A DNA stretch of 64,000 nucleotides, from contig NZ_JANFLT010000007.1 of assembly GCF_024385505.1 (NCBI RefSeq), positions 1 to 64,000 of the forward strand, in the 5' to 3' direction. Shown one piece after another: positions 29,037 to 57,230 of this stretch (positions are counted from its first letter, which is position 1; each line of letters starts with the position of its first letter). Both the position numbers and the translations under genes were made by a program. Origin of the DNA: Arthrobacter zhaoxinii (GTDB lineage Bacteria; Actinomycetota; Actinomycetes; Actinomycetales; Micrococcaceae). The notes under the pieces are model-generated. The model worked only from the letters and a program-made list of their open reading frames with translations. It ran no database searches and was not told the DNA's origin.

Positions 29037-29300
29037 TTAGGAAGCGGGGCCGGTTTCCGGCGGAAGGGTCCTGCCGGCCAGCAGCGCCTTGATGCGCTCT
29101 TCGGCGTCCGGTACGGCGGCGGCACTGGCGGCCATATTGGCTTCTTCCACTGCCCGCAGTACCTCATTGCGCTGGATTTTGACGCCGCGGGGAGCATCGA
29201 TGCCGATACGGATGCCGTCGCCGCGTGAATCCAGGACGGTAATGACAATGTCATCCCCGATCAGGATCTGTTCCCCGGACCTGCGTGTTAGCACCAGCAT
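29037..29300 (-). CDS. csrA: carbon storage / flagellin translation regulator CsrA
   Basis: This 87-residue RNA-binding protein starts MLVLTRRSGEQILIGDDI and keeps L4 and R44, the RNA-contacting residues of E. coli CsrA. The C-terminal extension carries the region contacted by FliW in Bacillus CsrA. It binds GGA motifs in hairpin loops and blocks ribosomes. It is the last gene of the minus-strand flagellar cluster, and fliW is at the far end, so a CsrA-FliW partner switch is expected. The ATG has TAGAGT 6 nt upstream, indicating its own leaderless transcript. Confidence 0.95.
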   Translation of the reverse strand: MLVLTRRSGEQILIGDDIVITVLDSRGDGIRIGIDAPRGVKIQRNEVLRAVEEANMAASAAAVPDAEERIKALLAGRTLPPETGPAS

Positions 29301-29306
29301 TCGCCC

Positions 29307-29312
29307 ACTCTA
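29307..29312 (-). promoter_or_regulatory. csrA -10 element (leaderless)
   Basis: TAGAGT on the minus strand, 6 nt before the csrA ATG. A leaderless csrA would be independent of the flagellar sigma factor. Confidence 0.45.
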
Positions 29313-37539: not shown

Positions 37540-37566
37540 CTATCGGCACCCACCGCCGGCTGGTTA
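37540..37566 (-). promoter_or_regulatory. sigma-28 promoter for fliM operon
   Basis: On the minus strand TAAC (37563-37566), 15 bp, GCCGATAG (37540-37547). It matches the sites before fliC, flgB and flgN. It overlaps the alternative fliM start and would give a nearly leaderless fliM-fliN-fliO-P-Q-R-flhB-flhA transcript. Confidence 0.75.
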
Positions 37567-37600
37567 GGAGATCCGTGCCGGCAGCCGCGGCCGGCGCCGC

Positions 37601-48655: not shown

Positions 48656-49047
48656 TAGGAGCGTCCAATCTGGAGTGCTGCTTCGTAGGTGCTCTTGGCA
48701 CGGTCAACCACGGCCGCATTGGCTTCATAGCCGCGCTGGGCGAGGATCAGGTTGCCCATCTGCTCCGAGAGGTCAATGTCCGGGTAGCGGACATAGCCTT
48801 CGGCGTCGGCCAGGGCGTGGTCGGGCTGGTACACCACCCGGCCTTCAGCGTCGCCGTACTGGACGCCGGCAACCTCCACTCCGGTGCCATTCGGTCCTTC
48901 CTGCGCCACGATGTAGCGGGCCTGGAAGGCAGCACCGTCGGTGCTGGAGACATTGTTGGCGTTGGCCAGGTTGTCGGAGACTGCGTCAAGCCACTTGCGG
49001 TGGGTGGTAAGTCCGGTGGCGGCAATGCCGATGGCATCGAAAGTCAT
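48655..49047 (-). CDS. flgC: flagellar proximal rod protein FlgC
   Basis: This 130-residue rod protein has the N-terminal motif LTTHRKWLDAVSDNLANANN and C-terminal MGNLILAQRGYEANAAVVDR. Order flgB-flgC-fliE is standard. Confidence 0.95.
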   Translation of the reverse strand: MTFDAIGIAATGLTTHRKWLDAVSDNLANANNVSSTDGAAFQARYIVAQEGPNGTGVEVAGVQYGDAEGRVVYQPDHALADAEGYVRYPDIDLSEQMGNLILAQRGYEANAAVVDRAKSTYEAALQIGRS

Positions 49048-49388
49048 TAGTTGGTCCTCAGTGCGGTGCGCAGGGAGTTGGCTTCTCCACCGACGGCCTG
49101 GGTGGCGAATTGGTAGCGCAGCACCGTGTCGATGTTGGACAACGTTTCGGTGTCCAGGTTGACGTTGCTGCCGTCCAGGCGGGTGGGTTCAAGGGAACGC
49201 TCAGTGGTGGGCGCAACTGCGCCGCTGCCGGCTTTTACTGATTTAGCGAGGGCGTCCTCAAAGGTGACGCGCTGGGCCTGATATCCGGGCGTGTTCACAT
49301 TCGCGATATTGCTCGCAATGGTCCGCTGGCGGAGGGCAAGGCCGTCCAGTGCGCTTTGAAGCGCAATGGAGGATACGGAATCGAACAC
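49047..49388 (-). CDS. flgB: flagellar proximal rod protein FlgB
   Basis: This 113-residue rod protein has RQRTIASNIANVNTPGYQAQ and the typical C-terminal NIDTVLRYQFATQAVGG. It is the first gene of the long rod/MS-ring/ATPase/hook operon. The GTG start has only a weak ribosome-binding site (CTGGG), so its translation may depend on the structured leader upstream. Confidence 0.95.
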   Translation of the reverse strand: MFDSVSSIALQSALDGLALRQRTIASNIANVNTPGYQAQRVTFEDALAKSVKAGSGAVAPTTERSLEPTRLDGSNVNLDTETLSNIDTVLRYQFATQAVGGEANSLRTALRTN

Positions 49389-49422
49389 AGTGTGAACCCA
49401 GGTTTCGCTAAAGGGACAGTGC

Positions 49423-49462
49423 GGCCGATCCGTGGCCTTTTACATGAGCTATCCGTGCTCAC
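49423..49462 (-). promoter_or_regulatory. flgB leader: two tandem GGA-loop hairpins (predicted CsrA sites)
   Basis: In the predicted flgB transcript, GUGAGC-ACGGAUA-GCUCAU (49444-49462) starts at about the first base, and GGCC-ACGGAUC-GGCC (49423-49437) follows. Both expose ACGGAU in a 7-nt loop, with the GGA triplets 23 nt apart, suited to one CsrA dimer. Confidence 0.6.
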
Positions 49463-49468
49463 TAATTG

Positions 49469-49495
49469 TTATCGGCACATTTTGCGAATGCGTAA
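49469..49495 (-). promoter_or_regulatory. sigma-28 promoter for flgB operon
   Basis: Minus strand TTAC (49492-49495), 15 bp, GCCGATAA (49469-49476). Transcription would begin near 49462, about 75 nt before flgB. Most of the 49389-49573 gap is thus promoter and leader. Confidence 0.78.
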
Positions 49496-49573
49496 GTCAT
49501 AACCGAGTAATTTTTCCGTTTTTGCCGGGTATGGGTTAAGGGAAAAGTAAGCAGCCTTGCATTCCAGCTGCTT

Positions 49574-49915
49574 TTAGCCGTCCACTTCCAGGTAAACGGC
49601 TGACGGCGCCGGACCGGTCACGCTGCTGATCAGCAGAGATTGCTTGCGGTTGGTCCGTGATTCGTTCCGCAGCTGTGCGTAGGCACGGGACTGTGCCTTG
49701 GACAGCAGCCGGGCGCGGACCATCAGTGCTTCCGGGAGCGGTCCGAGCTCGGCCGGCGGATCCCAATCGGCGGCCGCTTCGCGGGCCTGTTCCGCAACGG
49801 TGCCTTCGAGGAAGGTTTCCAGGTTGTCTTCGAGCTGGGTGAGGACGGTTCCCCAGAGCGCCAGGTTGGCCAGCTCCCCGGGGGTGCGGTACAGCTCTTC
49901 CGGTTCAGCCGACAC
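49574..49915 (-). CDS. small protein at the FliT position
   Basis: This 113-residue protein follows fliS and overlaps it by 11 nt (GTG at 49915). It is predicted helical, with PGELANLALWGTVLTQLEDN and a basic, Arg/Lys-rich second half ending in a short beta-like tail. FliT, the FliD chaperone, usually occupies this place, but I see no firm sequence match. The longer upstream frame is only a shadow of fliS. Confidence 0.6.
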   Translation of the reverse strand: MSAEPEELYRTPGELANLALWGTVLTQLEDNLETFLEGTVAEQAREAAADWDPPAELGPLPEALMVRARLLSKAQSRAYAQLRNESRTNRKQSLLISSVTGPAPSAVYLEVDG

Positions 49916-50366
49916 CGAGGATCGCTCCCCTAGCGCCGGCGGCGGCGGGGACTGCACCGGCTCCGGGTGCCGGCTGGGCTGCGGGAAGCTGCGCGGCGGC
50001 GTCGTGCCAGGCCACGCGGAGCGGCTCCAGCAGGTCGATGCATTCACGGGTGAGCTTCGCGTTCCGGCCCACGTTGGCACTCACGAGGGTGGAGAACGAG
50101 TACGTGTAGATCGCCTGCAGGTTCTCCGCGCCGTCCCACACATCTGTTTTCAGGGTACCCAGCAGCTCGGTAATGATGGCCTGCGCGTGGATCAGGTTCT
50201 CGGATGCCACGGCCCAGTCGGCCTGCTGCTGCGCAGTTTCCGCGCGGGTCAGGTCCAGCAGGAGGCGGTCATACAGCATGGTCAGCAGGCGGGCCGGGGA
50301 GGCCGACATTACCGCGTTGCGGGCGTATTCGGCCCGTTTGGCGGCCATTGAGTAGTTCACGTTCAC
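49905..50366 (-). CDS. fliS: flagellin chaperone FliS
   Basis: This 153-residue helical chaperone has the FliS signature ASPARLLTMLYDRLLLDLTRAE and an Ala/Pro-rich tail of about 25 residues beyond the usual end. It prevents premature flagellin polymerisation and, in Bacillus, helps FliW couple to flagellin export. Its start overlaps the fliD stop. Confidence 0.94.
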   Translation of the reverse strand: MNVNYSMAAKRAEYARNAVMSASPARLLTMLYDRLLLDLTRAETAQQQADWAVASENLIHAQAIITELLGTLKTDVWDGAENLQAIYTYSFSTLVSANVGRNAKLTRECIDLLEPLRVAWHDAAAQLPAAQPAPGAGAVPAAAGARGAILGVG

Positions 50367-51694
50367 TTCTTACTCGAGGAGGCGGAGAAGGAATCCAGCT
50401 GGGAGGTGAGCCAGTCCATTTGGCTGTTGAGCTTGCCGAGCGTGACTTCGAGGGTGGACCAGGTCCGGGTCAGTGTGGCCTGCCGGGATGACAGCCGGCG
50501 GTCCCAGTCCGCAATCTGCGTGTTCAGGGACTTGACTTCGCTCTCCTGGCCCTTGATCCGCAGGGTGATGCTGCCCTCGTACTTGTCCGAGATCTGCTTG
50601 CCGGCGGTCTCTACCCGGGAGGCAATGGTCTGCAGGGCGGCCTGGGTTTTTTCCGGGTCGGCTTTCAGGGCGGCGGCGAACTTGTCGGCATTGAATTCCA
50701 CCGTGCCGTCCTTGGTGATGACGATGCCGATTTCCGACGGCGACCGGCCGTCCACCGGGGACGTGGCGGCCCGCATGATCGTGTCCTTGAGCGCCCGCAC
50801 CCCCGAGTCACCGGTGAACTGGCCGCCGGAGGCTTTGGTGGTGCCGTCGGCGGTGGACACGCTGACGGCGGAGTTCCGGTTGATGTAGCTGAAGACGTCC
50901 ACCAGACCGGCCACGAGATTCGCCGCTACATCGGTGACGGCCTTCTCGTCGCGGTTCACGCTGACGGTGACCGGGGCGGCGGAGACTTCCTTGACCGAGA
51001 CATCCACCCCGGGGAGCAGATCCGCGAAGGTGTTGGTGGCGGACGTGATGAGAGTTTCCGCGCCGGCTACCCCTGCCCACAGGGTGACCTGCGCGTCCTG
51101 GGCGGGTCGGATATTGCCAAGGTCCGTGCCGTTGTGCGAAATGCTGAACGCACCCTCGCTGCCGGTGGCGGTGGCGGTGAACTGCATGCGGTACTGGGCT
51201 ACGCCGTCGACGCTGCCGGCGGCGATCTTCACGGCCGTGACGCCGAGGTTGGCCTTGTTGACGGTGTTGATGACCTCGTCCAGGCTCTTGCCCGCGGTGT
51301 CGAATTCGGTAATGGTGCCGTCCGCGGAAATGGACAGGGCGTCGCCGTTGGGCCAGGCCGCCATGGCTCCGGAGAGGGATACCTGGGCGGTGGCGAGCCT
51401 GTCGACGCGGATGTCCAGTGCACCTGCGGCTGCCCCCGGCTTGGTAACGACGGTGACCTTGTCCGAGGATGCGGTGGCAGAGTAGAGATCTGTTCCGGCA
51501 GGTTTTGCCACCTTGCCGGCGCTCTCCGCCAGGGAGGCGATCTTGGCGTTCAGGTTCTGCAGTGCGGTAACGAAGGTCTGGCTGGAGCTGACTTTTTGCT
51601 TCAGCATTGCCTGCGGGCGGGCTTCCACCGCCATCAGCTGGGCGATCATGGCCGTGGTGTCGGTACCGGTGGTGATGCCGTCTATGCCTGCCAT
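50363..51694 (-). CDS. fliD: filament cap protein FliD
   Basis: This 443-residue protein has the FliD N-terminal motif (IDGITTGTDTTAMIAQLMAVE) and a C-terminal coiled coil (SLNTQIADWDRRLSSRQATL). It caps the growing filament. The ATG follows AGAAGGAGCGGG. The gene heads a fliD-fliS-FliT-position unit with a long leader. Confidence 0.94.
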   Translation of the reverse strand: MAGIDGITTGTDTTAMIAQLMAVEARPQAMLKQKVSSSQTFVTALQNLNAKIASLAESAGKVAKPAGTDLYSATASSDKVTVVTKPGAAAGALDIRVDRLATAQVSLSGAMAAWPNGDALSISADGTITEFDTAGKSLDEVINTVNKANLGVTAVKIAAGSVDGVAQYRMQFTATATGSEGAFSISHNGTDLGNIRPAQDAQVTLWAGVAGAETLITSATNTFADLLPGVDVSVKEVSAAPVTVSVNRDEKAVTDVAANLVAGLVDVFSYINRNSAVSVSTADGTTKASGGQFTGDSGVRALKDTIMRAATSPVDGRSPSEIGIVITKDGTVEFNADKFAAALKADPEKTQAALQTIASRVETAGKQISDKYEGSITLRIKGQESEVKSLNTQIADWDRRLSSRQATLTRTWSTLEVTLGKLNSQMDWLTSQLDSFSASSSKK

Positions 51695-51767
51695 GCCCGC
51701 TCCTTCTGCTTCTGTGCTGCGCTGACCGGGCCGGGCCCGGACATGGGAACGGCAGGTACTGGGCTGA

Positions 51768-51806
51768 CGGCGGAGGCTGTGAGGTCCAAGTCATCTGCCT
51801 CCGCCG
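51768..51806 (-). promoter_or_regulatory. stem-loop between fliC and fliD (fliD leader hairpin or fliC terminator)
   Basis: On the minus strand a 10-bp GC stem encloses a 19-nt loop containing UUGGACC. It could end fliC transcription, but no U-run follows. If the candidate promoter at 51807-51833 is real, the stem-loop is the 5' end of the fliD message and offers GGA in its loop like the other leaders. Confidence 0.45.
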
Positions 51807-51833
51807 CCAGCGGCCATTTACCTGCCGGTGTTA
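51807..51833 (-). promoter_or_regulatory. candidate degenerate sigma-28 promoter for fliD
   Basis: Minus strand TAAC (51830-51833), exactly 15 bp, then GCCGCTGG (51807-51814), 6 of 8 bases of the strong GCCGATAG form. Position and spacing support it, but the -10 is weak. Confidence 0.35.
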
Positions 51834-51850
51834 CTGGTGGTGCTTACTTA

Positions 51851-52759
51851 CTACTGCAGGAGCTGCATCACGCCGCTGTTCATCTGGTTGGCCTGGGACA
51901 GCATTGCGGTGCCGGCCTGGGACAGGATCTGCGAGCGGGTGAAGCTTGCCATTTCCTGAGCCATGTCCGTATCGGTGATGCGGGACTTGGCAGCGGAGAG
52001 GTTCTCGACGGAAACGTTCAGCGACTTGGTTACTGATTCCAGCCGGTTCTGGGAAGCACCCAGCTCGGAGCGCTGGCCGGAGATGGCCTTGATGGCCGCA
52101 TCGAGACTCTTGATCGTTACCCCTGCTTCCGCAGTGGTCCCTACCTTGAACGCCGTGGCACCGGCTGCGGCACCAAAGGACTCGGTCGTCGCTGTCCCGA
52201 CGCCGGTGGTCGCGTCAAACGTGGTTCCCATCAGGCTGGTGGTGACGTTGCCGAGCTTCACTGCGATGGTGTCGGCGGCGCTTCCGCCCGCACCAACCTG
52301 AACGTTGATGATGCCCTTGTCAGTTCCCGAGCCGGCGGTGCCGTCGAGCAGGTTGATGCCGTTGAAGTTGGTACCTGAAACGATGCGGTTGAGTTCCTTG
52401 CCCAGCTCATTCGCTTCCGTCGAGATCGCGGCGCGTGACTCAGCATTGTTCGAGTCGTTACCGCCCTGCACCGCGAGGTCGCGCATACGGTTCAGGATGG
52501 AGTGGACCTCGGTCAGGGCGCCTTCAGCGGTCTGGATGACGCTGATGCCGTCCTGGGCGTTGCGGGCTGCAACGGTCATGCCGCTGACCTGGTTCTTCAG
52601 GCCTTCCGAGATGGCCAGGCCGGCTGCGTCATCGGCAGCACGGTTGATGCGCAGGCCGCTGGAAAGCTTCTCCAGGGACTTAGCCTGTGCATTCTGGTTC
52701 ATGTTCAGGTTGCGGTAGGCGTTGGTTGCCGCGGTGTTGGTGTTGATTGTGAAACCCAT
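51851..52759 (-). CDS. fliC: flagellin
   Basis: This 302-residue flagellin has the conserved N-terminal D0/D1 region (INTNTAATNAYRNLNMNQNA, then SSGLRINRAADDAAG) and C-terminal D1/D0 (QNRLESVTKSLNVSVENLSA, ending QANQMNSGVMQLLQ). The middle domain is short, so D2/D3 are minimal. It is the only flagellin gene in the window. It has its own sigma-28 promoter and a structured leader with predicted CsrA sites. Confidence 0.97.
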   Translation of the reverse strand: MGFTINTNTAATNAYRNLNMNQNAQAKSLEKLSSGLRINRAADDAAGLAISEGLKNQVSGMTVAARNAQDGISVIQTAEGALTEVHSILNRMRDLAVQGGNDSNNAESRAAISTEANELGKELNRIVSGTNFNGINLLDGTAGSGTDKGIINVQVGAGGSAADTIAVKLGNVTTSLMGTTFDATTGVGTATTESFGAAAGATAFKVGTTAEAGVTIKSLDAAIKAISGQRSELGASQNRLESVTKSLNVSVENLSAAKSRITDTDMAQEMASFTRSQILSQAGTAMLSQANQMNSGVMQLLQ

Positions 52760-52766
52760 GATGTAT

Positions 52767-52809
52767 TCCTCCGTGAGTGGGCTGTGTTCGCAGGCCCATC
52801 CATGGGCCT
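52767..52809 (-). promoter_or_regulatory. flagellin leader: CsrA-type hairpin plus GGA site on the Shine-Dalgarno
   Basis: RNA AGGCCCA-UGGA-UGGGCCU (52792-52809) is a 7-bp hairpin with GGA in a tetraloop, about 4 nt from the predicted 5' end. The Shine-Dalgarno region ACGGAGGA (52767-52774) is a second ANGGA site, the two GGA triplets lying 29 nt apart. This is the layout of the Bacillus hag leader. Confidence 0.72.
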
Positions 52810-52819
52810 ACACCACTAG

Positions 52820-52846
52820 TTATCGGCGGAGCACCAAGGGGTGTTA
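52820..52846 (-). promoter_or_regulatory. sigma-28 promoter for fliC
   Basis: Minus strand TAAC (52843-52846), 15 bp, GCCGATAA (52820-52827), the consensus FliA/SigD -10. Predicted start near 52813 gives a leader of about 54 nt. Confidence 0.85.
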
Positions 52847-52894
52847 GCAGTTTGGGAAAAGAATTTGAAATAAAGATTTACGGCGGCGGAAAGC

Positions 52895-53758
52895 CTAGGA
52901 AGCGGCCGGCTTGAACGTCACGGGCCGGCCGGGCAGCCCGGGGACCAGCCCCTGCGTTCCGGGAAAAACCGGTGCCAGATGGTGCCGTGTAATACCGCCG
53001 GCGGTACGGTCCCCCACCGAGGTGAGGTAGGCATTGCGGCGGGCCGGGGCAATCCGGGACTGGAGTTCCGGTGCGGCACTGGTGTCGGAGTAATGCGTGC
53101 CCAGGCCGTCACGGAGCAGGCGGACGGCCTCTGCGCGCTGCTGGGACACGGCGGAGTGGGTGCTGCCCAGCTCTTCGGCTATTTCCTTGACCGTGCGGTC
53201 GTGGAAGTAGATCTCCTCTATGACGTACCGCATCTTCTCCGGCAGGGCGGCGACGGCGGCCTGCAGGTACTTCAGGCGTTCCGAAGCCAGGAGGGAACCT
53301 TCCGGCGACGGCATATCAGCGACGAGGAAGTCAGCCACGGACTCGTCCAGGCTGCACACTGTGCGGGATGCGTCGGAAAGGGCATCCTCGGCCACCATAC
53401 GATCCACACCCAAAGCGGAGGCGATTTCGTCCACGTTCGGGGTGCGGCCCAGGGCGGCAGTCAGGGTTTCCTTCACCGCGAGGGTTTCCTTGATCCGACG
53501 GCGGGCCGAGCGGGTGGCCCAGTCATTGGAGCGCATCTCGTCGGCAAACGCTCCGATGATGCGGCGCCGGGCATAAGCGCCGAAAGGCACACCCAGATTC
53601 GGGTCGAACGAAGCGGCCGACGTTATCAGGGCAATGGACCCGACGGAGGCCAGGTCGTCACGCGAGAGGTGCGTGGCCTTGGCGCAGACTTCGGATACGA
53701 GATAACCGACCAATGGCAGATTTTCCACCACCATGGCATTACGTGCAGAATGATTCAT
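52895..53758 (-). CDS. fliA: flagellar sigma factor FliA (sigma-28)
   Basis: This 287-residue FliA/WhiG-type sigma-70 protein has region 2 (LSRDDLASVGSIALITSAAS, FGAYARRRIIGAFADEMRSN), region 3 and region 4 (RTVKEIAEELGSTHSAVSQQ). A C-terminal tail of about 60 residues goes beyond the usual end. It sits directly upstream of its strongest predicted target, fliC. Its ATG follows GGGGGT. No sigma-28 site is seen for fliA itself, and no flgM anti-sigma gene is in the window. Confidence 0.94.
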   Translation of the reverse strand: MNHSARNAMVVENLPLVGYLVSEVCAKATHLSRDDLASVGSIALITSAASFDPNLGVPFGAYARRRIIGAFADEMRSNDWATRSARRRIKETLAVKETLTAALGRTPNVDEIASALGVDRMVAEDALSDASRTVCSLDESVADFLVADMPSPEGSLLASERLKYLQAAVAALPEKMRYVIEEIYFHDRTVKEIAEELGSTHSAVSQQRAEAVRLLRDGLGTHYSDTSAAPELQSRIAPARRNAYLTSVGDRTAGGITRHHLAPVFPGTQGLVPGLPGRPVTFKPAAS

Positions 53759-53886
53759 TTTTGGACCCCCAAGTCCTTGTTCCCCAACAGTCCCCCAACT
53801 GCAACCGTTAAACGCGCTGGCTTAGTGGTCAGTGGCTGAGTCCGCTGGTGAATCCACTCTCGAGCGCTTTAGCTGAAACATACCAC

Positions 53887-53913
53887 TAACATTCAAGATG
53901 AACCGGCCGATAG
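53887..53913 (+). promoter_or_regulatory. sigma-28 promoter for flgN-flgK-flgL-fliW
   Basis: TAAC (53887-53890), 15 bp, GCCGATAG (53906-53913). Predicted start about 53920 gives a leader of about 120 nt before flgN. Confidence 0.78.
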
Positions 53914-53920
53914 TGTTTTG

Positions 53921-53948
53921 TGGCGGACATATTGGAATATGCCCGCCA
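53921..53948 (+). promoter_or_regulatory. flgN leader hairpin with UGGA loop (predicted CsrA site)
   Basis: TGGCGG pairs with CCGCCA (one A-C mismatch follows) and CATAT with ATATG, leaving the tetraloop TGGA at 53933-53936. The hairpin lies at the 5' end of the predicted transcript. Downstream, AGGAGG before the flgN ATG is a further GGA site. Confidence 0.62.
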
Positions 53949-54042
53949 ATCCGAAGACTTTTGCCGCAGGTTGGGGCCTGGAATCAGACGTCTTATTCCG
54001 TACCAGAGATATTCAGTGCACTACCTAGGAGGTGAGCCAGGC

Positions 54043-54528
54043 ATGGGTACCCAGAGACTCTCGGCCCTTCTATGGGAAGAGCGTGAATTGTTGGAACTTC
54101 TTGTGTTCAAGCTCGAAGAAGAACAACTGCTGCTTACCTCCGGAAAAACCAAATGGCTGACGCACGCCACCCGTGAGGTTGAACAGGTCCTCGAGCGGCT
54201 CCGCGCCGCCGATCTCGGCCGGGCCGTCGCCGTCGCCGGCCTCGCCGTCGAATGGGGCACCTCCGAAGATGCGACCCTGCGCGAATTAGTGGCCGCGGCA
54301 CCCGCCGGCCCCTGGACGGAAATCTTCAACGCCCATCTGCAGGCCATGACGGAGCTGACCGTGAAGATCCGCGAACTGCGCGATATTAACGAACAGTTCC
54401 TGCGCGCTGCAGCACGGTCCGCCCAGGAAACACTGGCGGGACTGAATCCCGAGGCAAACACCTACACGGCGGCCGGCACCTCGGCCACCCGCATGTCAGC
54501 CGCCCGGCTGGTTGACCAGAGCATTTGA
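54043..54528 (+). CDS. flgN: FlgN-type chaperone for hook-filament junction proteins
   Basis: This 161-residue helical protein starts MGTQRLSALLWEERELLELL, a FlgN-like segment, and lies just before flgK, whose product FlgN delivers to export. ATG 54043 is preceded by AGGAGGTG at good distance. An in-frame GTG at 53920 exists, but the extra 41 codons are AT-rich, contain the leader hairpin and do not look like coding sequence. Confidence 0.85.
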   Translation: MGTQRLSALLWEERELLELLVFKLEEEQLLLTSGKTKWLTHATREVEQVLERLRAADLGRAVAVAGLAVEWGTSEDATLRELVAAAPAGPWTEIFNAHLQAMTELTVKIRELRDINEQFLRAAARSAQETLAGLNPEANTYTAAGTSATRMSAARLVDQSI

Positions 54529-55959: not shown

Positions 55960-56847
55960 GTGATCACCCGCACCACGAATCAGACCATGGCCCGCGCAGC
56001 CCAGCAGAATCTGCAGGCCAGCATGTCCCGGATGACCAAGCTGCAGGAGCAGGTCAGCTCCTCCTCGGCTATCTCCCGGCCCTCCGACGACCCGGGTGCT
56101 ACGGCCAGTGCGCTCAAGGTTCGGGCGGAAATCCGCGCCAACACCCAGTACGCCTCCAACCTCAACGACGCCGAGGGCTGGCTGAGCGTCACCGACACCG
56201 CCCTCAGCAACACCACGGATATTTTGAACCGGGTCAAGGACCTCACTATCAGCGCCGCCAACGGCGCGCTGACTCCGGACAACCGCAAGGCCATCGCCGT
56301 CGAACTGACCGGCCTGAAATCCGATTTGCTGCGCGAGGCCAACACCACCTTCATGGGCCGGACGGTCTTTGCCGGCACTTCCGACGCCGGCGCTGCCTTC
56401 ACCTCGGCGAACGGTTCCTACACCTACACCGGTAACGGCGTACCAACCTCCCGACGGCTGGACAGCGGCACGCTAATGCAGGTGGACACCAACGGCGCGG
56501 CCGTCTTCGGCACCGGGGATGCCTCCGTCTTCCGGGTGGTCGATGACCTCGTGGCCGGGCTGGAGTCCGGCAAGGACGTCAGCGGGTTCCTGGGGAGAAT
56601 CGACGCCGCGGCAAGCACCGTGCTGGTGGAACACACCGGCCTCGGAGTGCGCCACTCCGCCACCTTGAAAGCGAAGGATGCTCTTTTGGACCAGTCCGTC
56701 AGCCTTGAAAGCCGCCGTTCCGGCATCGAGGACCTGGACACCGCCAAGGTGATCCTGGACATGAAGCTGCAGGAAGTCGCGTACCAGTCGGCACTCTCTG
56801 TGACGGCGCGGGCCCTGCAGCCCACCCTGATGGACTTCCTGCGATGA
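55960..56847 (+). CDS. flgL: hook-filament junction protein FlgL
   Basis: This 295-residue HAP3 protein is flagellin-like at both ends (MARAAQQNLQASMSRMTKLQ, SSAISRPSDDPGATASALKV; C-terminal LDMKLQEVAYQSALSV). The GTG start follows GGAAGG. Its stop overlaps fliW (ATGA). Confidence 0.95.
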   Translation: MITRTTNQTMARAAQQNLQASMSRMTKLQEQVSSSSAISRPSDDPGATASALKVRAEIRANTQYASNLNDAEGWLSVTDTALSNTTDILNRVKDLTISAANGALTPDNRKAIAVELTGLKSDLLREANTTFMGRTVFAGTSDAGAAFTSANGSYTYTGNGVPTSRRLDSGTLMQVDTNGAAVFGTGDASVFRVVDDLVAGLESGKDVSGFLGRIDAAASTVLVEHTGLGVRHSATLKAKDALLDQSVSLESRRSGIEDLDTAKVILDMKLQEVAYQSALSVTARALQPTLMDFLR

Positions 56848-57230
56848 GCACGGTCCTGACCTTCCTTGCACCGCCTCCGGGGTTCGCGCCGGACGTGGAC
56901 TTCCGTCTGGACGACATTGACGGTGCCAGCGGCCTGTACGCCATGAGCTCTACAGGAACCGTGGCCGCCCACCGGCTGTTTGTCCTCGACGCGGCCGTGT
57001 ATCTGCCGCAGTACCATCCGGAAATCACCGACGAGCAGCGCCGCCAGCTGAAACTGGAAACCCCGGAGGACGCCGTCGTACTCGTGGTCGCCAATCCCAC
57101 GCTCGACGGAACCACAGTGAACCTGCTGGCACCGATTGTGGTCAATGTATCCACCGGCAGCTGCGCGCAGGTGATCCTTGAAGACCAGGACTGGCCCGTC
57201 CGCGCTCCCCTGGAGCCGGTGGCCGCCTAG
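56844..57230 (+). CDS. fliW: flagellar assembly factor FliW
   Basis: This 128-residue beta-barrel protein has FliW features: FRLDDIDGASGLYAMSST, FVLDAAVYLPQYHPEI and VVNVSTGSCAQVILED. FliW binds flagellin when it builds up in the cytoplasm; when free it removes CsrA from flagellin mRNA. It is coupled to flgL and stands at the opposite end of the cluster from csrA. Confidence 0.93.
   Translation: MSTVLTFLAPPPGFAPDVDFRLDDIDGASGLYAMSSTGTVAAHRLFVLDAAVYLPQYHPEITDEQRRQLKLETPEDAVVLVVANPTLDGTTVNLLAPIVVNVSTGSCAQVILEDQDWPVRAPLEPVAA

What the first reader, a model, noticed from the sequence alone, without database searches (positions are those of the whole stretch)
49423..53948. GGA-loop hairpins at the 5' ends of sigma-28 flagellar transcripts: a wide CsrA/FliW regulon
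Seen: the predicted transcripts of fliC, flgB and flgN begin within a few bases with a hairpin whose loop holds GGA (UGGA, ACGGAUA and UGGA), and fliD may do the same with UUGGACC. flgB has two tandem loops, both ACGGAU. Known: CsrA binds ANGGA in hairpin loops, and in Bacillus CsrA represses flagellin translation until FliW sequesters it. csrA and fliW flank this cluster. Inference: rod, junction, cap and filament operons are all gated by one post-transcriptional switch, broader than the flagellin-only circuit of Bacillus.
Basis: partly seen in the sequence, partly recalled or inferred. Interest (0 to 1): 0.88.

Follow-up and report, generated by a model that had tools for sequence, protein, structure and literature searches.

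The report
CsrA-site hairpins on flagellar mRNAs
The messages for the flagellar filament and for the flagellar base of this bacterium start with conserved RNA hairpins that look like docking sites for the regulator CsrA; the filament one copies a known switch, while the paired one before the base genes looks like a new variant that recurs in many actinobacteria.

Summary
The hairpins are real but unequal. (1) fliC: a GGA-loop hairpin plus a GGA over the ribosome site, matched in 57 of 57 leaders, window included, with compensatory stem changes: the known Bacillus hag layout. (2) flgB: tandem hairpins, loop GGAs 21-26 nt apart, in 51 of 51 leaders, 33-45 nt from the start codon, so not over the ribosome site. 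In the phylum an ANGGA pair precedes flgB in 30 of 66 genomes against 1.5% of control windows; in one distant order the second GGA sits in a terminator-like hairpin. (3) flgN: GGA loop in the window and three relatives only. (4) fliD: UUGGACC tops a covarying fliC-fliD spacer hairpin, 38 of 55, without its own promoter. The promoter consensus has five perfect genome matches, four here. CsrA probably binds fliC and flgB. It likely represses fliC; its effect on flgB is undetermined, activation favoured. No binding was tested. CsrA acting on rod-gene mRNAs is known elsewhere: a new variant of a known kind.

The parts
49470..49496 (-). flgB sigma-28-type promoter CTTAC-N15-GCCGATA
   Evidence: One of 5 perfect matches in the 3.5 Mb genome
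49445..49461 (-). flgB leader hairpin 1, loop ACGGAUA
   Evidence: tandem pattern in 51 of 51 flgB leaders, window included; loop ANGGAT in 51 of 51
49423..49437 (-). flgB leader hairpin 2, loop ACGGAUC; its GGA is 21-26 nt after the first GGA across relatives
   Evidence: loop ANGGA(T/C) in 51 of 51
49047..49388 (-). flgB (GTG start), first gene of the flgB...csrA gene run
   Evidence: TIGR01396 76 bits over its cut-off 59.05; gene run
52821..52847 (-). fliC sigma-28-type promoter CTAAC-N15-GCCGATA
52790..52811 (-). fliC leader hairpin, loop UGGA (AUGGAU)
   Evidence: both-side changes at 6 of 8 pairs over 41 sequences
52767..52774 (-). second CsrA-type site ACGGAGGA overlapping the fliC ribosome site
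   Evidence: GGA 12-15 nt from the start codon in 57 of 57; ACGGAGGA in 51, ACGGAAGA in 3, AAGGAAGA in 3
51851..52759 (-). fliC (flagellin)
   Evidence: PF00669 and PF00700
   Evidence: 38 of 55 spacers; 7 of 8 inner pairs with both-side changes over 21 distinct sequences
53886..53912 (+). flgN sigma-28-type promoter CTAAC-N15-GCCGATA
53922..53947 (+). flgN leader hairpin with UGGA loop; seen with GGA in the window, L033, L034 and L035 only
   Evidence: not supported as a conserved element
37541..37567 (-). fliM sigma-28-type promoter; no GGA in the 63 nt after it
29037..29300 (-). csrA, 87 aa with a C-terminal extension, last gene of the flgB run; the only CsrA match in the genome
   Evidence: PF02599 82.2 bits, 1 match; translation
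56844..57230 (+). fliW, after flgN-flgK-flgL
   Evidence: PF02623 76.5 bits
52895..53758 (-). FliA/WhiG-like sigma factor, the likely reader of these promoters
   Evidence: Pfam sigma-70 regions 2 and 4; best NCBIfam match TIGR02479 at 127.3 bits, under its cut-off of 189.6

Best explanation
The fliC and flgB leaders are targets of CsrA, with FliW as antagonist. On fliC a CsrA dimer bridges the hairpin loop and the ACGGAGGA ribosome site and blocks translation, as for hag in Bacillus (anatomy shown, action inferred). On flgB a dimer bridges two hairpin loops near the predicted 5' end, 33-45 nt from the start codon. It therefore probably acts on the life or elongation of the 20-kb basal-body mRNA, whose last gene in this genome is csrA, rather than by covering the ribosome site; the more likely outcome is a positive effect (inferred, sign undetermined). 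While the hook is unfinished and FliW is held by unexported flagellin, free CsrA would keep the base operon on and flagellin off; hook completion would reverse both.
For: ANGGA loops on different stems, always on the sense strand. fliC site pair in 57 of 57 and flgB pair in 51 of 51 leaders. fliC stem covaries. flgB pair keeps 21-26 nt spacing. csrA in 49 of 49 relatives searched and in 56 of 60 FlgB-bearing genomes of 396. ANGGA pair before flgB in 30 of 66 genomes against 28 of 1834 control windows. In one distant order the second GGA is the foot of a terminator-like hairpin between a promoter-like site and flgB. Precedents read in passages: flhDC, two CsrA sites near the 5' end stabilise the mRNA (PMC7652899); flaA, two GGA stem-loops repress (PMC4894983).
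Against: No binding, 5' end or expression datum. flgB stems hardly vary, so their pairing rests on conservation more than covariation (1 of 9 pairs with both-side changes, reached by 498 of 500 shuffles). The window leader has no terminator, so the sign suggested by the distant order need not carry over. Tandem sites could repress, or merely titrate CsrA. csrA may have its own leaderless promoter (TAGAGT six bases before ATG), and in Actinosynnema csrA follows fliW (PMC9019756, table passage), so feedback through the flgB operon is not general. 36 of 66 flgB leaders in the phylum lack the pair.
Confidence: 0.5

Rival explanations
1. CsrA represses both operons: bound to the flgB tandem hairpins it blocks translation or speeds decay, a plain negative feedback, and FliW relieves fliC and flgB together.
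For: The review passages call repression prevalent; csrA lies downstream of flgB on the same strand in the window and in G365, G111 and G307; two loops allow a bridging dimer.
Against: flgB GGA2 lies 33-45 nt from the start codon in 51 of 51 leaders, fliC GGA2 12-15 nt in 57 of 57. Gating the base on flagellin export would be circular, since export needs the base (reasoning).
Confidence: 0.25
2. The flgB leader is a CsrA sponge: its tandem sites titrate CsrA and so tune fliC, without regulating flgB.
For: In Campylobacter flaA mRNA titrates CsrA, and CsrA bound flaG, flaB and flgI leaders without a substantial change of their protein in a csrA deletion (PMC4894983, passages). In one distant order the terminator would release a short leader RNA, with two sites in 10 of 13.
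Against: One operon mRNA may be too scarce to titrate CsrA (reasoning); it does not explain why the pair stays before flgB in 14 families.
Confidence: 0.15
3. The conserved inverted repeats downstream of the flgB start site are DNA operators for a repressor, not RNA elements.
For: GAGC-N7-GCTC and GGCC-N7-GGCC are nearly invariant, as operators can be; stem covariation is weak.
Against: The conserved centre ANGGAT is asymmetric and in sense orientation, inside two different arm pairs, and the same motif sits in the fliC loop, whose stem covaries as RNA.
Confidence: 0.07

Closest known systems
Bacillus subtilis hag leader with CsrA, FliW and Hag partner switch (PMC7652899, passages; site details recalled)
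   Same: fliC leader here: GGA hairpin plus GGA over the ribosome site; csrA and fliW present; CsrA has a C-terminal extension, the part FliW contacts in that system.
   Different: csrA ends the flgB gene run (in Bacillus it follows fliW, recalled); a second leader, flgB, carries tandem sites away from the ribosome site.
Campylobacter jejuni flaA and wider CsrA set (PMC4894983, passages)
   Same: flaA leader has two ANGGA stem-loops, the second over the ribosome site, with compensatory changes; several other flagellar mRNAs bind CsrA.
   Different: flgB was hardly enriched there (1.6-fold in the table passage); flgB is the most constant non-flagellin candidate here.
CsrA on rod-gene mRNAs in Acidithiobacillus caldus and Pseudoalteromonas fuliginea (PMC13029372 and PMC11882849, passages)
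   Same: CsrA bound the flgC leader in a gel shift and rod genes in RIP-seq, so control of the base by CsrA is not new in itself.
   Different: flgB is not among the four leaders named as bound in A. caldus; no paired-hairpin flgB leader appears in the passages read; these are not actinobacteria.
Escherichia coli flhDC leader (PMC7652899, passages)
   Same: Two CsrA sites near the 5' end of a leading flagellar operon mRNA.
   Different: Different gene, sigma and RNase setting; protection was not tested here.
Clostridioides difficile flgB leader with c-di-GMP riboswitch Cd1 (PMC10889297, passages)
   Same: flgB operon controlled by its leader RNA.
   Different: No riboswitch match: window at gathering scores gives two tRNAs only, 49300-54100 none at E up to 1, 20 distant flgB loci none.

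Membership tests
hag-type CsrA/FliW flagellin leader (fliC) | GGA in a hairpin loop upstream of the ribosome site | tested here: met
   CCA(C/U)GGA-N-GG pattern in 57 of 57 leaders; stem counted on 41 sequences, both-side changes at 6 of 8 pairs; phylum: GGA hairpin in 22 of 30 leaders fetched, of 54 flagellin-bearing genomes
hag-type CsrA/FliW flagellin leader (fliC) | second GGA overlapping the ribosome site | tested here: met
   57 of 57; phylum 28 of 30, but AAGGAGG is also the ordinary ribosome-site consensus
hag-type CsrA/FliW flagellin leader (fliC) | csrA and fliW in the genome | tested here: met
   csrA, fliW; csrA in 49 of 49 relatives
hag-type CsrA/FliW flagellin leader (fliC) | CsrA binds and represses; FliW relieves | not testable with these tools
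   needs protein and strains
hag-type SD-occluding leader (flgB) | GGA overlapping the ribosome site | tested here: not met
   GGA2 33-45 nt from the start codon in 51 of 51
flhDC-type 5'-end protection (flgB) | two CsrA sites close to the mRNA 5' end | tested here: inconclusive
   two sites just after a promoter-like match; 5' end not mapped
flhDC-type 5'-end protection (flgB) | CsrA slows RNase attack | not testable with these tools
   needs decay assays
CsrA protein family | PF02599 over cut-off; Leu4 and Arg44 kept (residue roles recalled) | tested here: met
   82.2 bits; L at 4 and R at 44 in the translation; the 52-residue core alone stays just under the best NCBIfam cut-off (70.8 of 73)
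FliA/sigma-28 | over the curated cut-off of TIGR02479 | tested here: not met
   127.3 bits against 189.6; still the best match
CsrA-site terminator leader (distant order) | terminator-like hairpin holding ANGGA before flgB | tested here: not met
   none in the window leader by reading; R3 has no match in G000 at E up to 0.001

The most novel reading that the evidence does not exclude
A reciprocal CsrA switch of actinobacterial flagella: free CsrA shuts flagellin and at the same time keeps the basal-body operon, here including csrA itself, running through a paired-site 5' leader. In one order that leader carries an intrinsic terminator whose 5' arm is a CsrA site, that is, a CsrA-relieved transcription attenuator before flgB.
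Probability: 0.3. Interest if true: 0.75.

Novelty: new variant of a known kind. Interest (0 to 1): 0.55.

Why it matters
It would put the rod and basal-body operon under the same RNA-binding protein as the filament, through a leader of different geometry, in a phylum for which the searches listed no study of CsrA and FliW at work. It makes a simple question testable: whether one protein can hold the base on and the filament off until the hook is done. The terminator form in a distant order would be a CsrA-relieved intrinsic terminator; the review passages read show CsrA promoting Rho-dependent termination, and one search on CsrA and antitermination (listing only) showed no title or abstract opening of that kind.

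Tried and rejected
Chance: GGA-in-loop hairpins occur in 22% of 60-nt stretches of the window, so single-genome hairpins were not accepted without conservation. The same baseline weakens the 22 of 30 phylum fliC hairpins.

Translation switch on flgB by a helix hiding the start region: mean native pairing energy -8.87 against -8.70 kcal/mol for partners swapped between species, native better in 20 of 40; rejected.

Wider regulon by sequence-structure models: R1 (flgB) and R2 (fliC) each give one strong match in the genome, the leader they were partly built from; the next are E 0.004 and 0.022, and none of the other fetched matches in the genome lies near a flagellar gene by tblastn with 12 window proteins. 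R1 in 396 phylum genomes: 33 matched at E 0.01 or better; of the 30 matches fetched only the window and G365 lie at flgB. R1 thus missed the tandem hairpins seen in G307 and G211. L118 (G275) has a GGCC-ACGGATC-GGCC hairpin before a frame whose start I recognised from memory as FlhB-like.

flgN as a conserved target: rejected. fliM leader: promoter but no GGA. Known riboswitch: no match.

The promoter pattern with up to one mismatch gives 14 matches against 10 for the reversed control, so only the five perfect matches are used; in the window with up to two mismatches 5 against 3.31 expected.

Rows dropped: the first fliC pattern missed three Agromyces leaders; a looser one matched 57 of 57. 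The fliC alignment A4 leaves out those three and L090. Loci cut short or without the gene give no row.

An earlier count said 16 families for the ANGGA pair; a recount gives 14.
Full report
Where it lies. The window is a flagellar cluster of an Arthrobacter-like actinobacterium; the nearest named relatives are Arthrobacter zg-Y769, zg-Y238, zg-Y844 and A. yangruifuii, at 90-92% identity of the sigma factor. Pfam names flgB, fliS, fliD, fliC, flgN, flgK, flgL and fliW around the finding, and most of the gene run down to flhA. From flgB to csrA the named genes lie on the minus strand; the gaps are at most 81 nt, except 275 nt between fliP and fliR where a fliQ-sized gene fits but was not named. 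csrA is last there; fliW follows flgN-flgK-flgL on the plus strand.

The promoters. fliC, flgB and flgN each follow CTWAC-N15-GCCGATA. In the 3.5 Mb genome the perfect pattern occurs five times: before fliM, flgB, fliC and flgN in this cluster and once before a reading frame of up to 471 aa on another contig. With up to one mismatch the count, 14, hardly exceeds the reversed control, 10, so the weight is on four of five perfect matches falling in one cluster. A looser version, for which I ran no control, precedes 48 of 57 fliC, 48 of 51 flgB and 46 of 51 flgN genes, window included. The sigma gene in the cluster is FliA/WhiG-like but under the curated cut-off.

Relatives. A scan with the sigma factor gave 75 loci: 66 actinobacterial, mostly of genera that I place by recall in Micrococcaceae and Microbacteriaceae, and 9 off-target. 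fliC was found with a usable start in 57 and flgB in 51, window included. They hold 45 distinct fliC and 51 distinct flgB leaders; many are from one genus, Cryobacterium.

fliC. All 57 leaders match CCA(C/U)GGA-N-GG and a second GGA 12-15 nt before the start codon, within ACGGAGGA (51), ACGGAAGA (3) or AAGGAAGA (3). On 41 aligned leaders the stem has both-side changes at 6 of 8 pairs, 89.6% of cells paired, covariation score 0.345 against 0.175 in shuffles. In the wider phylum, 28 of 30 fetched leaders (of 54 flagellin-bearing genomes) have ANGGA at the ribosome site and 22 of 30 a GGA hairpin upstream. This is the hag layout, a known kind.

flgB. All 51 leaders match the tandem pattern, GGA to GGA 21-26 nt, second GGA to start codon 33-45 nt. 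The first loop is ANGGAT in 51 (ACGGAT in 37), the second ANGGAT or ACGGAC in 51 (ACGGAT in 41). Two or more ANGGA outside the last 20 nt occur in 49 of 49 leaders tested against 0.7 expected by shuffling. The stems scarcely vary, and the count of pairs with both-side changes, 1 of 9, is no more than shuffles give; one telling exception by eye is Glutamicibacter, GCCC-ACGGAU-GGGC (L089).

flgN, fliD, fliM. The flgN UGGA loop is kept in the window, L033, L034 and L035, with a compensating stem change in the first two of those relatives, and lost in L032 (by eye). More distant Arthrobacter (L036-L039, L088) have ACGGAU near the start, which I did not fold. Over 48 leaders ANGGA occurs in 20 against 11.1 expected. 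The fliD element is a spacer hairpin with 8-nt loop [ACU][CU]UGGACC (ACUGGACG in L095) in 38 of 55 fliC-fliD spacers; its inner stem has both-side changes at 7 of 8 pairs over 21 distinct sequences, score 0.550 against 0.161. It is absent in 17 of 55, among them the Frigoribacterium, Agromyces, Microbacterium and Glutamicibacter loci. It is a conserved RNA structure, but its loop is not ANGGA and no promoter was found for it. fliM has the promoter and no GGA in the 63 nt after it.

The phylum. Of 396 evenly drawn genomes, 60 have FlgB and 73 CsrA at the thresholds used, 56 both (Fisher p 1e-47); FlgB without CsrA: G132, G218, G246, G378; 17 have CsrA without a FlgB match. I read flgB upstream regions of 67 genomes, 66 of them long enough; 15 of the 67 are of family f16, sampled more deeply on purpose. 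An ANGGA pair 14-28 nt apart lies in the 132 nt before the last 18 in 30 of 66, in 14 of 23 families; the same test hits 28 of 1834 other windows of the same loci (1.5%) and 3.8% of shuffles. Nine of the 30 are of f16. Families f2, f13, f21, f22, f25, f28, f38, f39 and f59 have none.

A terminator form. In the order of G058, 13 of 14 flgB leaders match GACAA...CUCANGGAGGAG...CUCCUCC, a terminator-like hairpin followed by (G/U)UU between a promoter-like site and flgB; 10 of 13 have an ANGGA upstream of it, 17-20 nt away in the nine genomes measured. A strict terminator scan found 15 hairpins within 150 nt of flgB in 73 loci, 14 with ANGGA at the foot, all of this order (10 genomes, four of them seen twice), against 3 of 34 terminators elsewhere in the loci. 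Model R3 built on the 13 gives five strong matches in 316 genomes, all before flgB and all from genomes in the model; six weaker matches were not examined. By eye, similar GGA-footed hairpins precede flgB in other families, untested. This suggests that CsrA frees transcription into flgB there; it is inference.

Mechanism. Shown here: hairpins, loops, spacing, promoter-like sites, conservation, presence of csrA and fliW. Inferred: CsrA binding; repression of fliC by covering the ribosome site; a different mode at flgB. Reasons to favour a positive effect on flgB are the distance from the start codon, the flhDC precedent (PMC7652899, passages), the terminator form in a distant order, and the circular logic of gating the base on export. 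None is decisive. CsrA has 87 residues with a C-terminal extension, the region that FliW contacts in Bacillus (PMC7652899, passages). csrA lies downstream of flgB on the same strand also in G365, G111 and G307, though an unbroken run was not shown there; in Actinosynnema it follows fliW (PMC9019756, table passage).

Literature. The library is open-access only. Searches listed no title or abstract opening on CsrA or FliW at work in actinobacteria or on a paired-site flgB leader; most listed papers were not opened. Passages read: PMC10746217 lists CsrA and FliW among flagellar proteins searched in actinobacteria; PMC4682653 proposes that actinobacteria, among others, may use FliW to control CsrA; PMC4894983; PMC7652899; PMC10889297; PMC13029372, where CsrA shifts the flgC leader and flgB is among the primer templates but not among the leaders named as bound; PMC11882849, RIP-seq of flagellar genes including rod; PMC11607428, nothing on CsrA with flgB in the passages; PMC9019756.

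Verdict. Partly confirmed observation, partly supported interpretation. The fliC leader is a known kind; the flgB paired-site leader is a new variant and the part worth the bench.

Noticed in passing
51749-51824 (-): Long hairpin in the fliC-fliD spacer with near-invariant 8-nt loop [ACU][CU]UGGACC and strongly covarying stem in 38 of 55 spacers; no Rfam match; role unknown (CsrA site, other protein or kissing loop).
   Followed up: partly
   Followed up: partly
G000:C5:2263-2289 (L279): Fifth perfect sigma-28-type promoter of the genome, before a frame of up to 471 aa that looks secreted by eye; the leader holds UACGGAC.
   Followed up: no
L081-L085, L087, L094: Arthrobacter agilis/echini group: a sigma factor 61-63% identical to the flagellar one stands without fliC, flgB or flgN in the locus, yet the six of these seven genomes that could be searched keep csrA.
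   Followed up: no
29307-29312 (-): TAGAGT six bases before the csrA ATG looks like a leaderless promoter, so csrA may also be transcribed on its own.
   Followed up: no
L293 (G365) and L296 (G307): csrA itself has CACGGAAGG at its ribosome site in these two genomes, a possible CsrA autoregulatory site; absent in the window.
   Followed up: no
L118 (G275), centre: GGCC-ACGGATC-GGCC hairpin just upstream of a reading frame that starts like FlhB (recognised from memory).
   Followed up: no
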